Source of the DNA: a bacterium
GTDB taxonomy: Bacteria; Pseudomonadota; Gammaproteobacteria; Burkholderiales; Burkholderiaceae_C
NCBI GenBank assembly: GCA_030824555.1
Contig: JAVBXK010000028.1
Span: forward strand, 43,463 to 107,462
Direction: 5' to 3'
Length of the DNA: 64,000 bases
Below the pieces are notes generated by a model. The model was not told the origin of the DNA and did no database searches. It saw only the letters and a program-made list of their open reading frames with translations. Positions 57,873 through 61,199 of the stretch are shown one piece after another. Made by a program: the position numbers and the translations under genes. Within the stretch, counting starts at the first letter, position 1. Each line of letters begins with the position of its first letter.

Positions 57873-60800
57873 TCAGCGTCCCCAGCCGTATGCGTAGGCG
57901 GTCATGTAGGTGTAACAGACGCTCGCATCGTCAGCCAGTTCGAGAAAGCTGAATTGGCGACGCTGCCAGGGCGCGAAATCGTGTTCGCTCATTTCCTGGG
58001 TCAGGTCGTGCAGCACCATGCCCCGGTCGGCAAAAAAACGGTGGCGCGCAGGGCCTTCCATGACCACGCGCACATCACGGTGGCGCGTGTCGGCCTTGAT
58101 GTGGTCCATCAAGGCAAGCAGGGTGTCCCGCTGGCCTTCGAGCATTTGCATGAAAAAGCCGTCCCGGTACACCAGGCAGCCCGAAATGTCGTTCGAGCGA
58201 TTGAATGACTGGGCCAGCTTTTGCAGCGGGCCCAGGTCTTCGCCCGAGAGTGAATGCGTGGCCTGGCTGACGTAGATCAGGCAATACAGCGGGTAGGCCG
58301 CGCTGGGGGTGGCTGCTTGCAACTCGCGAGCAAACGTGTCGACAAACGTCGATGCCGTGAGTGGCCGATGGAAGTAATAGCCCTGGATCAGATCGCAACC
58401 ATAGGCACACAACTCGTGTCGCTGCGCGCCCGTTTCAACACCTTCTGCCACCAGCTTCATCCCCAGCGAGCGTCCCAGACCGATGACAGCCCGGATGATG
58501 TTGCGGCTTTCTTCACTCTTGTCGATACCGTCGACAAAGGCGCGGTCGATCTTCAGCACATTGACCGGCATGCGTGTCAACTGCGCCAGCGACGAATACC
58601 CGGTGCCGAAATCATCCACCGCCACGCGCAGGCCCAGGTCAGCCAGGCGACGCAGGATGCGCAGATTGGCTTCGACATCGGCCATCAGCGAGGTCTCGGT
58701 GATTTCCAGCAGCAGGCGCGTCGGGTCGGCCCCCGTCTCGCGCAAGGTGGCTGCAAAATCGTCCACCAGTGTCTCGTTGCTCAACTGTCGCACGGAGACA
58801 TTGACCGAGACATACGGTGCCTGCTCACCCCACCGGTTGCGCCAGTCGGCCTCGGCCAGACAAGCCTGGTGGAAGACCCAAGCCCCGATGGGCACGATGG
58901 CACCGGTGAGTTCGGCAATGGGTATGAACACCGCTGGCGAGACCTCACCCGTCGGCGGGTGCCAGCGCAGCAGCAATTCGGCTCCCACGATGCGGCCGCT
59001 CTCGGCGGCCACAATGGGCTGGAAGCGCGGCGACAGTTCGTTGCGCTCAATGGCCGTGCGCAGGCCGTTGGTGATGTGCAGCCGCTGACGGGCCACGTCT
59101 TGCAGGCTCTCGCTGAAAAACTGCCAACCGTCACGCCCTTTTTTCTTCACCGCATACATCGCCGCGTCGGCAAAACGAAGCAGATCATCGGCACCGTGGG
59201 TGGTGCCACTGCCGATGGCCACACCGATGCTGGCGGTGACAAACAGTGACAGGCCGTTGAAATGGACAGGCTTGCGCAAGGTGTCGTTGATCCGCTCGGC
59301 CAGCACCGACATCGACGTGGGCTGTTCCACCTGCTCGCACAAAATGACAAATTCGTCACCGGCCAGGCGCGCCACCGTGTCGCCGGGCCGCACCTGCTCG
59401 ATCAGGTGGGCCGCGACCGACTTCAGCAGCACGTCGCCGGTTTCGTGACCGTGGGTGTCGTTGATGAGCTTGAAACCATCGAGATCGACAAACAGCAGAG
59501 CCACGTTCAAACCGCTGCGGCGCGAACGCAGCAAGGCAGTGGCCAGCCGCTCACGGATCAGCGCCCGGTTGGGCAGGCCGGTGAGCGGGTCGTGTGTGGC
59601 ACGTCGCGTCAGTTCTTCCTCGGCCTTTTTGCGCTCGGTGATGTCGCGGATGGTGACGACCAGCAGCCAGTCTTTGCCTTGCCTGACCTTGGCGATGGAG
59701 CCCTCCATCGGGAAAAAACTGCCATCTTTGCGGTAACCCATCAACTCTTTGCGCTCGGACATCCGGCGCTCGGTTTCCTTGCCCTCGACAAAATCACGCA
59801 ACTGCTCGACATGCCGCTGGCGGAAATGGGGGGGCAGCAGCAGGTGTACCGACAGGCCGATCATTTCCTCCTCTTTGTAACCAAACACCTGGCTGGCACG
59901 TTGGTTGGATTCGGTGATGAGGCCTTCGGCATCGGTGGCCAGGATCGCCATGTCGGCGATGGAAAATATTTGGTGGGCGGTGCCGAGTTTGCGTCGCGCT
60001 GCGGACGCTTCTGCCGCCAACCGGGCCGTGACGGCGGGTGTCTGCGGGGATTCGTGCAGCAGCGCGACCTGTGCCTGGTCTCGGTAGCGTTCCGGTATCA
60101 ACGGCGCCATGCGACCAAAGCTTTCGATGACCGTGAAGGTGCCATCGGCCTTGCAGCGCGCAAGGTAGCCATTGATGTGCGCGTGGTGGGTGGCGCCGTC
60201 CATCTCAACGATGCCCTGTGCCCCGGTGACGCGCACTTTTTCCAGCGCATCGACCAGCGCCTCCACGTCGGTCGTTCCCGCTGCTTCCAGCGCGTTCGCG
60301 AAGGCATGCACACACAGGTAGGTGCCTTCCCCGAAGTTGGTCAGCACACCATTCCCGTGCGGCCAGATGCCGTTGATGCCGGGCTGGTCCCGCAGGCGCC
60401 GCAGGTAGCGGTGGTTTTCCGGGGTGTCGAGCGACATGAAATAGCTGTTGCTCGAATAAAAGCCCTCGCGAACATGAGGCGGCAACAGGCTGACCATCAT
60501 TTCGTCGTAATGCCCCATCACCACGGCCATGCGCTTTTTCAGCCCGAGCTCGGTGAAGCGGGTCAGCAAAGCGATCTGGTCTGTGCCAGCAAAATAAGGC
60601 ACGAACACGTCGGCACCCGAGCGAGCGACCTGGGCCAGCAGCTGGTCGATGGCGTCGCTGTCGCAACCGATGGGCAGGTATTCCTCGCCAACGATGTCAC
60701 CGTCAAGGCGCAGCAAGGCGCGCTTGGCAGCATCGATCGAGCCGCGTGGCCATTCGTAGTTGTTGCCAGCAAAAAACATTTTGAGGCCGTAGCGCTGCGC

Positions 60801-61199
60801 CATGTACGGCATCATTTTGTCGATCTGCTGGTTGGGCAGTGCGGCAAAACTGAAAAAGTAACGCCCGCTGATGCTGCCTTCGTAGAACGAGAAATTGAGC
60901 AAGGGAATCTGTTTCGGCTGTGCGACCTTGGTCGCCACGGCGATGCGCGAGTTGGACAGCAGGTTGCCGATGATGGCGATGCAGCCGTGATCGTCGACCA
61001 GGCGTTCGGCCGCAGGCACAGCGGTGTCGGGCAAGCTGCCGTCGTCCTCGATCACCAGTTCAAGCCGTCGGCCCAGCAGGCCGCCGCGTTCGTTGATTTC
61101 GTCGCAGGCAATCCGAGCTGCCCAGACAATTTCTCGGCCATAAATTTCAACGAGTCCTGTGAGGGGGGGCATCAAGCCAAGGCGAATTGAATCAGGCAT
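57873..61199 (-). CDS. Cytoplasmic UrtA/AmiC-like sensor - PAS - GGDEF - EAL - BLUF multidomain protein
   Basis: N-term DEINERGGLLGRRLELVIEDDGS...FAALPNQQ parallels UrtA; PAS; LAGDEFVIL; AELLLRWHPP; DDFGTGYSSL; AEGVET; C-term YPLYCLIYVSQATHS...FNRSNDISGCLVYRDGFFMQMLEG...DTRHRDV = BLUF. Confidence 0.9.
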   Translation of the reverse strand: MPDSIRLGLMPPLTGLVEIYGREIVWAARIACDEINERGGLLGRRLELVIEDDGSLPDTAVPAAERLVDDHGCIAIIGNLLSNSRIAVATKVAQPKQIPLLNFSFYEGSISGRYFFSFAALPNQQIDKMMPYMAQRYGLKMFFAGNNYEWPRGSIDAAKRALLRLDGDIVGEEYLPIGCDSDAIDQLLAQVARSGADVFVPYFAGTDQIALLTRFTELGLKKRMAVVMGHYDEMMVSLLPPHVREGFYSSNSYFMSLDTPENHRYLRRLRDQPGINGIWPHGNGVLTNFGEGTYLCVHAFANALEAAGTTDVEALVDALEKVRVTGAQGIVEMDGATHHAHINGYLARCKADGTFTVIESFGRMAPLIPERYRDQAQVALLHESPQTPAVTARLAAEASAARRKLGTAHQIFSIADMAILATDAEGLITESNQRASQVFGYKEEEMIGLSVHLLLPPHFRQRHVEQLRDFVEGKETERRMSERKELMGYRKDGSFFPMEGSIAKVRQGKDWLLVVTIRDITERKKAEEELTRRATHDPLTGLPNRALIRERLATALLRSRRSGLNVALLFVDLDGFKLINDTHGHETGDVLLKSVAAHLIEQVRPGDTVARLAGDEFVILCEQVEQPTSMSVLAERINDTLRKPVHFNGLSLFVTASIGVAIGSGTTHGADDLLRFADAAMYAVKKKGRDGWQFFSESLQDVARQRLHITNGLRTAIERNELSPRFQPIVAAESGRIVGAELLLRWHPPTGEVSPAVFIPIAELTGAIVPIGAWVFHQACLAEADWRNRWGEQAPYVSVNVSVRQLSNETLVDDFAATLRETGADPTRLLLEITETSLMADVEANLRILRRLADLGLRVAVDDFGTGYSSLAQLTRMPVNVLKIDRAFVDGIDKSEESRNIIRAVIGLGRSLGMKLVAEGVETGAQRHELCAYGCDLIQGYYFHRPLTASTFVDTFARELQAATPSAAYPLYCLIYVSQATHSLSGEDLGPLQKLAQSFNRSNDISGCLVYRDGFFMQMLEGQRDTLLALMDHIKADTRHRDVRVVMEGPARHRFFADRGMVLHDLTQEMSEHDFAPWQRRQFSFLELADDASVCYTYMTAYAYGWGR

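What the first reader, a model, noticed from the sequence alone, without database searches (positions are those of the whole stretch)
57873..61199. Soluble UrtA/AmiC-like ligand sensor fused to PAS-GGDEF-EAL and a C-terminal BLUF photosensor
Seen: the 1108-aa protein begins MPDSIRLGLMPPLTGLVEIYGREIVWAARIACDEINERGGLLGRRLE, with an in-frame TAA two codons upstream, no signal peptide and no obvious TM. This N-terminus parallels the UrtA encoded in the same window (DEIN-KGGLLGKKLE; AAPNQQ vs ALPNQQ). The C-terminal 140 aa keep the three canonical BLUF flavin-site residues: Tyr in LIYVS, Asn in FNRSNDISG, Gln in FMQMLEG, plus DTRHRDV. GGDEF is AGDEF and EAL is ELL, but DDFGTGYSS, KID and AEGVET are intact, so phosphodiesterase activity is plausible. 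Known BLUF-EAL proteins (YcgF/BluF, BlrP1) lack a solute-binding sensor, and AmiC is a cytoplasmic amide sensor. The inference is one enzyme integrating blue light and a small ligand (amide/urea/amino acid) to set c-di-GMP. I do not recall this architecture being characterised.
Basis: partly seen in the sequence, partly recalled or inferred. Interest (0 to 1): 0.92.

Follow-up and report, generated by a model that had tools for sequence, protein, structure and literature searches.

The report
Blue-light c-di-GMP phosphodiesterase, BldP-type
The gene really encodes one soluble protein joining a small-molecule binding domain, enzymes for the bacterial messenger c-di-GMP and a blue-light sensor, but it belongs to a widespread family whose members in two other bacteria (BldP) are already known as blue-light-activated phosphodiesterases; what remains open is which molecule its conserved binding domain senses.

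Summary

It is neither unique nor uncharacterised. The same architecture occurs in about 50 of 86 relatives examined, across several phyla. The only BLUF protein long enough to carry an EAL domain in Allochromatium vinosum DSM 180 (chromosome length matched exactly), and in a genome that fits Magnetococcus marinus MC-1, has the same five domains at 58% identity. These must be BldP, listed in a 2022 review as blue-light-activated c-di-GMP phosphodiesterases. The window protein is best filed as a BldP orthologue.

All eight EAL catalytic residues and the BLUF Tyr, Asn and Gln are present. One oddity was missed: the BLUF Trp, present in 48 of 48 relatives, is Arg1059 here.

The urea/amide idea is not supported in detail. 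The domain has the AmiC/UrtA fold, but only three of eight UrtA urea residues remain. Its own pocket is nearly invariant in all 86 relatives, whatever the output domain. So the likely ligand is one conserved, unidentified molecule. That is the interesting remainder.

The parts
57873..61199 (-). complete ORF, 1108 aa plus stop; BldP-type SBP-PAS-GGDEF-EAL-BLUF protein
60084..61190 (-). Peripla_BP_6/5 (type I solute-binding, AmiC/UrtA fold), residues 4-372, soluble, no signal peptide
59958..60080 (-). low-confidence linker, residues 374-414
   Evidence: AlphaFold2 pLDDT about 35-48
59634..59957 (-). PAS domain (residues 415-522), nearest solved relatives FixL/DosP; His463 (59811-59813) aligns with the FixL haem His but is not diagnostic
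59130..59600 (-). GGDEF domain, residues 534-690; active-site motif AGDEF (59349-59363), RxxD I-site R604/D607 kept
58362..59063 (-). EAL phosphodiesterase domain, residues 713-946; E741 N800 E832 D862 D863 K883 E919 Q939 all present
58017..58289 (-). BLUF domain, residues 971-1061; Tyr976, Asn1000, Gln1018
58023..58025 (-). Arg1059 codon CGG at the BLUF Trp position (Trp in 48 of 48 relatives)
57876..58004 (-). C-terminal cap after BLUF (residues 1066-1108), conserved DFxxWxRR...ELAxDAxxCY..ITA, probable light-signal relay
   Evidence: alignment A4; helix at 1092-1104

Best explanation
A cytoplasmic BldP-type c-di-GMP phosphodiesterase. Most likely mechanism: the C-terminal BLUF domain binds FAD; blue light rearranges the Tyr976/Gln1018 hydrogen-bond network; the conserved C-terminal cap passes the change to the EAL dimer, which then hydrolyses c-di-GMP faster. 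The N-terminal AmiC/UrtA-fold domain closes on one conserved, still unknown small polar molecule and, through the linker, PAS and GGDEF, sets how active or how light-responsive the EAL domain is. Shown by sequence and model: the domains, their order, the catalytic and flavin-site residues, the absence of membrane anchoring, orthology to the A. vinosum and probable M. marinus proteins, and the near-invariant ligand pocket. Established for the orthologues, not for this protein: light-activated PDE activity. Inferred: flavin binding and photoactivity here, ligand binding, ligand-light integration, and the role of GGDEF and PAS.
For: Five Pfam domains. AlphaFold2 and Foldseek: the SBP domain matches UrtA-urea and AmiC structures (target TM 0.84-0.91), PAS-GGDEF-EAL matches PA0861, DosP and MorA. 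G412 contig 1 is 3,526,903 bp, exactly the A. vinosum DSM 180 chromosome (PMC3368242); its two BLUF ORFs are 261 and 1150 aa, and the 1150-aa one has the same five domains and 58% identity over 1100 residues. G415, one 4,719,581-bp contig in the class of a Magnetococcales locus, has BLUF ORFs of 144, 168 and 1122 aa; the last is 58% identical with the same domains. The review PMC8846402 lists BldP of A. vinosum and M. marinus as blue-light-activated BLUF/FAD phosphodiesterases with mutant and direct-assay evidence, and EB1, made from BldP, is in use as a blue-light PDE. EAL and BLUF key residues are invariant in 49 of 49 proteins. BLUF is under purifying selection in the window lineage (dN/dS about 0.2 against L040).
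Against: Arg1059 replaces a Trp found in all 48 other BLUF members and could alter photochemistry or signal relay, although BlrP1 is light-active with Thr aligned there. AGDEF can be an active cyclase (VCA0965, PMC3974145), so net synthesis is possible. The BldP primary paper (Ryu et al. 2017) was not held; its details are from memory. A role for the SBP domain is untested in any member as far as I could find.
Confidence: 0.8

Rival explanations
1. Bifunctional enzyme: the AGDEF domain is an active diguanylate cyclase and light and/or ligand switch the balance between synthesis and hydrolysis.
For: D615, E616 and F617 are invariant in 49 proteins, position 613 is A/S/G (25/11/13), and the RxxD inhibition site is kept; the AGDEF protein VCA0965 makes c-di-GMP (PMC3974145); 13 family members have Gly at the first position.
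Against: The BldP orthologues are listed as PDEs only; many GGDEF-EAL proteins use GGDEF as a regulatory GTP-binding domain (general knowledge).
Confidence: 0.25
2. The SBP domain is an amide/urea sensor like AmiC/UrtA.
For: Best solved relatives are urea-binding proteins and AmiC; PNQQ signature shared; Ser82, Glu107 and Tyr148 align with UrtA Ser122, Glu146 and Tyr190.
Against: Trp120, Tyr141, Gln144 and Asn246 of UrtA are Leu80, Asn102, Phe105 and Ala204 here, and the Ser274 position is a gap next to His230; UrtA W120A and mutants of the four hydrogen-bonding residues lose or weaken urea binding (PMC10392092). AmiC Tyr83 and Tyr104 also align with Leu80 and Asn102.
Confidence: 0.12
3. The BLUF domain of this particular protein is impaired or retuned by Trp1059Arg, leaving a mainly ligand-controlled PDE as in the BLUF-less relatives.
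For: Only member of 49 without Trp; BLUF is the least conserved domain (mean pairwise identity 0.44 against 0.70 for the SBP); 19 relatives lack BLUF and the label changes at least 6 times on the SBP tree.
Against: Tyr, Asn, Gln and Met kept; dN/dS of BLUF about 0.2; BlrP1 works without this Trp (alignment).
Confidence: 0.15
4. The PAS domain is a haem oxygen sensor of FixL type that is the dominant input.
For: FixL and DosP are the nearest solved PAS domains; His463 aligns with the FixL proximal His and is invariant; from memory, BldP light activation depended on oxygen.
Against: The same His occurs in the nearest, otherwise unrelated PAS domains of this genome (8 of 27 sampled, including the closest ones), and the FixL distal Arg aligns with Lys or a variable residue, so the His is not diagnostic.
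Confidence: 0.15

Closest known systems
BldP of Allochromatium vinosum and Magnetococcus marinus (blue-light-dependent c-di-GMP PDE)
   Same: same five domains in the same order, 58% identity over 1055-1100 residues, invariant EAL and BLUF key residues
   Different: window protein has Arg instead of Trp at BLUF position 1059; its genome shows no photosynthetic reaction-centre match, whereas A. vinosum is a phototroph
BlrP1 of Klebsiella pneumoniae and BluF/YcgF of E. coli (BLUF-EAL)
   Same: BLUF coupled to EAL; BlrP1 is a light-activated PDE
   Different: BLUF is N-terminal there and C-terminal here; no SBP, PAS or GGDEF; BluF EAL is degenerate
AmiC (amide sensor) and UrtA (urea-binding protein)
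   Same: fold and PNQQ clade (TM 0.84-0.91); AmiC is also cytoplasmic (general knowledge)
   Different: about 25-28% identity, different pocket residues, not fused to c-di-GMP enzymes (AmiC acts through AmiR, UrtA through an ABC transporter)
PA0861, DosP, MorA (PAS-GGDEF-EAL phosphodiesterases)
   Same: PAS-GGDEF-EAL core
   Different: no SBP, no BLUF

Membership tests
BldP (SBP-PAS-GGDEF-EAL-BLUF) | C-terminal EAL-BLUF module | tested here: met
   EAL 713-946, BLUF 971-1061
BldP (SBP-PAS-GGDEF-EAL-BLUF) | end-to-end homology to the A. vinosum and M. marinus proteins | tested here: met
BldP (SBP-PAS-GGDEF-EAL-BLUF) | blue-light-stimulated c-di-GMP hydrolysis | not testable with these tools
   known for orthologues only (PMC8846402)
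BLUF photoreceptor | Tyr, Asn, Gln flavin-site residues | tested here: met
   Y976, N1000, Q1018
BLUF photoreceptor | semi-conserved Trp (AppA Trp104 position); not strictly defining | tested here: not met
   Arg1059; Trp in 48 of 48 relatives; BlrP1 has Thr
BLUF photoreceptor | bound flavin and red-shifted light state | not testable with these tools
   needs purified protein
EAL phosphodiesterase | metal and catalytic residues E, N, E, D, D, K, E, Q | tested here: met
   E741 N800 E832 D862 D863 K883 E919 Q939
GGDEF diguanylate cyclase | GG(D/E)EF active-site motif | tested here: inconclusive
   AGDEF; such a motif is active in VCA0965
UrtA urea-binding protein | Trp120, Ser122, Tyr141, Gln144, Glu146, Tyr190, Asn246, Ser274 | tested here: not met
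   3 of 8 kept; urea_ABC_UrtA model scores 151.9 bits against a cut-off of 492.75
AmiC amide sensor | fold and amide pocket | tested here: inconclusive
   fold TM 0.91; aromatic residues Tyr83 and Tyr104 replaced by Leu80 and Asn102; their pocket roles are recalled from memory
FixL-type haem PAS | proximal haem His and distal Arg | tested here: inconclusive
   His463 aligned and invariant, distal Arg position Lys or variable, His also in the nearest unrelated PAS domains

The most novel reading that the evidence does not exclude
The soluble AmiC/UrtA-fold domain of this family is a distinct class of intracellular sensor for one conserved, still unknown small molecule. It has been plugged into c-di-GMP enzymes and histidine kinases across several phyla, and in BldP proteins it gates a blue-light-activated phosphodiesterase, so that one enzyme computes light and metabolite together. 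In the window protein the light response is retuned by Arg1059.
Probability: 0.4. Interest if true: 0.65.

Novelty: new member of a known kind. Interest (0 to 1): 0.38.

Why it matters
As a BldP orthologue the protein is largely already explained on the light side. What matters is the unsolved half: the review PMC8846402 states that of the whole periplasmic-binding-protein clan only SBP_bac_3 has been studied in c-di-GMP networks, yet here is a Peripla_BP_5/6 domain that is the most conserved part of the protein and keeps its pocket nearly identical in 86 relatives while outputs and the BLUF domain come and go. Finding its ligand would give a ligand-and-light-controlled PDE and could help improve the EB1 optogenetic tool.

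Tried and rejected
Viral-contig scans with the full protein and with the SBP domain found no relatives. Gene neighbourhood: no neighbour family is conserved beyond close Allochromatium relatives and a sensor-kinase-like protein near 6 loci, so no functional hint. Photosynthesis in the host: no reaction-centre protein. Haem PAS: the conserved His was tested against other PAS domains of the genome and is not diagnostic. BLUF decay: tested by dN/dS and rejected as the default. A regex count of the BLUF Trp failed to match and was replaced by an alignment count. In the MAFFT alignment the window UrtA is shifted by one residue at 102-105 against the HMMER alignment; the pairing in the text follows HMMER.

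Full report
OBSERVATION. The ORF at 57873-61199 lies on the minus strand and encodes 1108 aa. The start ATG is preceded by an in-frame TAA two codons upstream. Pfam finds, in order, Peripla_BP_6/5 (4-372), PAS (about 415-522), GGDEF (534-690), EAL (713-946) and BLUF (971-1061), all above the curated cut-offs. NCBIfam gives no equivalog above its cut-off among the 25 best matches shown. No hydrophobic N-terminus or membrane helix is visible by hydropathy.

STRUCTURE. An AlphaFold2 model from 23 aligned relatives has mean pLDDT 82.7 but pTM 0.43, so domains are confident and their arrangement is not. Foldseek against the PDB matches PAS-GGDEF-EAL of PA0861, DosP and MorA, and the N-terminal domain with UrtA-urea (target TM 0.84-0.90) and AmiC (0.89-0.91).

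RELATIVES. Within 401 genomes of the same family only five hold a match to the SBP domain at E <= 1e-40; three of these are long fusions: the window's own, G234 (72% identity) and G359 (52%). The latter two are SBP-PAS-GGDEF-EAL without BLUF. A scan of 85,488 species genomes with the SBP alignment found 170 relatives; the best 80 are 65-83% identical over the domain and come from Beta-, Gamma-, Alpha- and deltaproteobacterial lineages, Magnetococcales, Nitrospirota, Spirochaetota, Campylobacterota, Myxococcota, Bdellovibrionota and Fidelibacterota. Counting these with the window and five further proteins, of 86 SBP sequences 50 are followed by GGDEF-EAL-BLUF, 19 by GGDEF-EAL only, 10 by other outputs and 7 are cut off. 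Three of the ten were scanned and are histidine kinases. On the SBP tree the BLUF label needs 13 changes, at least 6 forced by well-supported branches, so BLUF has been gained or lost repeatedly.

THE KNOWN KIN. PMC8846402 lists BldP of A. vinosum and M. marinus as blue-light-activated, FAD-binding BLUF phosphodiesterases with mutant and direct-assay evidence, and EB1 is a tool derived from BldP. From my own memory of the abstract of Ryu et al. 2017 (not held), BldP proteins contain C-terminal EAL-BLUF modules and their light activation depends on oxygen. Genome G412 has a 3,526,903-bp chromosome, exactly that of A. vinosum DSM 180 (PMC3368242). It has two BLUF ORFs, 261 and 1150 aa; only the second can hold an EAL domain, and it has all five domains and 58% identity to the window protein over 1100 residues. 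Genome G415, reached through a Magnetococcales locus, is one 4,719,581-bp contig, which I recall as the length of M. marinus MC-1; of its three BLUF ORFs only one is long (1122 aa), with the same domains and 58% identity. Hence the window protein is a BldP orthologue. All eight genomes of the Allochromatium genus group that were searched carry one long BLUF ORF of 1122-1155 aa.

ACTIVE SITES. In 49 aligned BLUF members the eight EAL catalytic residues, BLUF Tyr976, Asn1000 and Gln1018, and PAS His463 are invariant; the GGDEF first position is A/S/G (25/11/13) and the RxxD site is mostly kept. ELL instead of EAL leaves the catalytic Glu741. AGDEF does not prove inactivity: VCA0965 with AGDEF makes c-di-GMP (PMC3974145). 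Arg1059 is unique: all 48 others have Trp; the codon is CGG, one transition from TGG. BlrP1 has Thr aligned there, and dN/dS of the BLUF stretch is about 0.2 against L040, so a functional BLUF remains the default.

LIGAND. [quoted passage not shown] By the HMMER alignment these fall on Leu80, Ser82, Asn102, Phe105, Glu107, Tyr148, Ala204 and a gap beside His230: three of eight kept. Conversely Leu80, Ser82, Asn102, Ser104, Tyr148, Trp150, Gln208, Asp232 and Glu233 are identical in all 86 family members, and Phe105, Ala204, Gly229 and His230 in 85 of 86. Caveat: loci were picked with the patterns LNFS[FC][YQ]EG and FAALPNQQ, so Asn102-Glu107 are partly conserved by selection of the data; Leu80, Ser82, Tyr148, Trp150, Ala204, Gln208 and His230-Glu233 are not. 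The SBP is also the most conserved domain (mean pairwise identity 0.70, BLUF 0.44). The simplest reading is one shared ligand that is not urea. Which residues line the pocket is inferred from alignment to UrtA and AmiC, not from a bound structure.

PAS. FixL and DosP are the nearest solved PAS domains and His463 aligns with the FixL haem ligand, but PAS domains of the same genome with similar motifs also have this His. Haem is possible, not shown.

CONTEXT. No conserved neighbours across the family, no reaction-centre gene in the host, and no SBP match at E <= 1e-40 in the four other genomes of the genus that were searched. The gene looks like a stand-alone, patchily distributed signalling gene in a bacterium without the reaction centre of phototrophs.

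VERDICT. Residual interest lies in the ligand of the conserved SBP and in the Arg1059 variant.

Noticed in passing
58023-58025 (-): BLUF Trp replaced by Arg1059 (CGG), unique among 49 family members.
   Followed up: yes
G000:C10:96912-97187 (L147:4913-5188): Second BLUF protein of the same genome; it reads as a short stand-alone BLUF protein (MLTRLLYVSRAV...) directly downstream of an ORF that looks like GTP cyclohydrolase I.
   Followed up: partly
57447-57815 (+): Small Rubrerythrin/ferritin-like protein (PF02915, E 1e-6) convergent with the gene.
   Followed up: partly
56734-57228 (+): Short lipoprotein-like ORF with a collagen-type GxxGxTG repeat (PF01391 just above cut-off) and 9/18-bp tandem repeats.
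   Followed up: partly
62827-62888: Hexanucleotide repeat (TTGCAG) x10 inside an AsmA-family gene (61424-63511 -); a multiple of three, so it would change the length of a Thr/Ala-rich stretch rather than the frame.
   Followed up: no
L039:6902-9919 (G359): SBP-PAS-GGDEF-EAL protein without BLUF on a very long branch (SBP about 52% identical) that differs at otherwise invariant pocket positions (Cys for Phe105, Cys for Gly229, Gln for His230); perhaps a changed ligand specificity.
   Followed up: partly
L093, L107, L074: The same SBP module fused to PAS/GAF-histidine kinases, with an identical pocket; these sit in one well-supported cluster of non-GGDEF members.
   Followed up: partly
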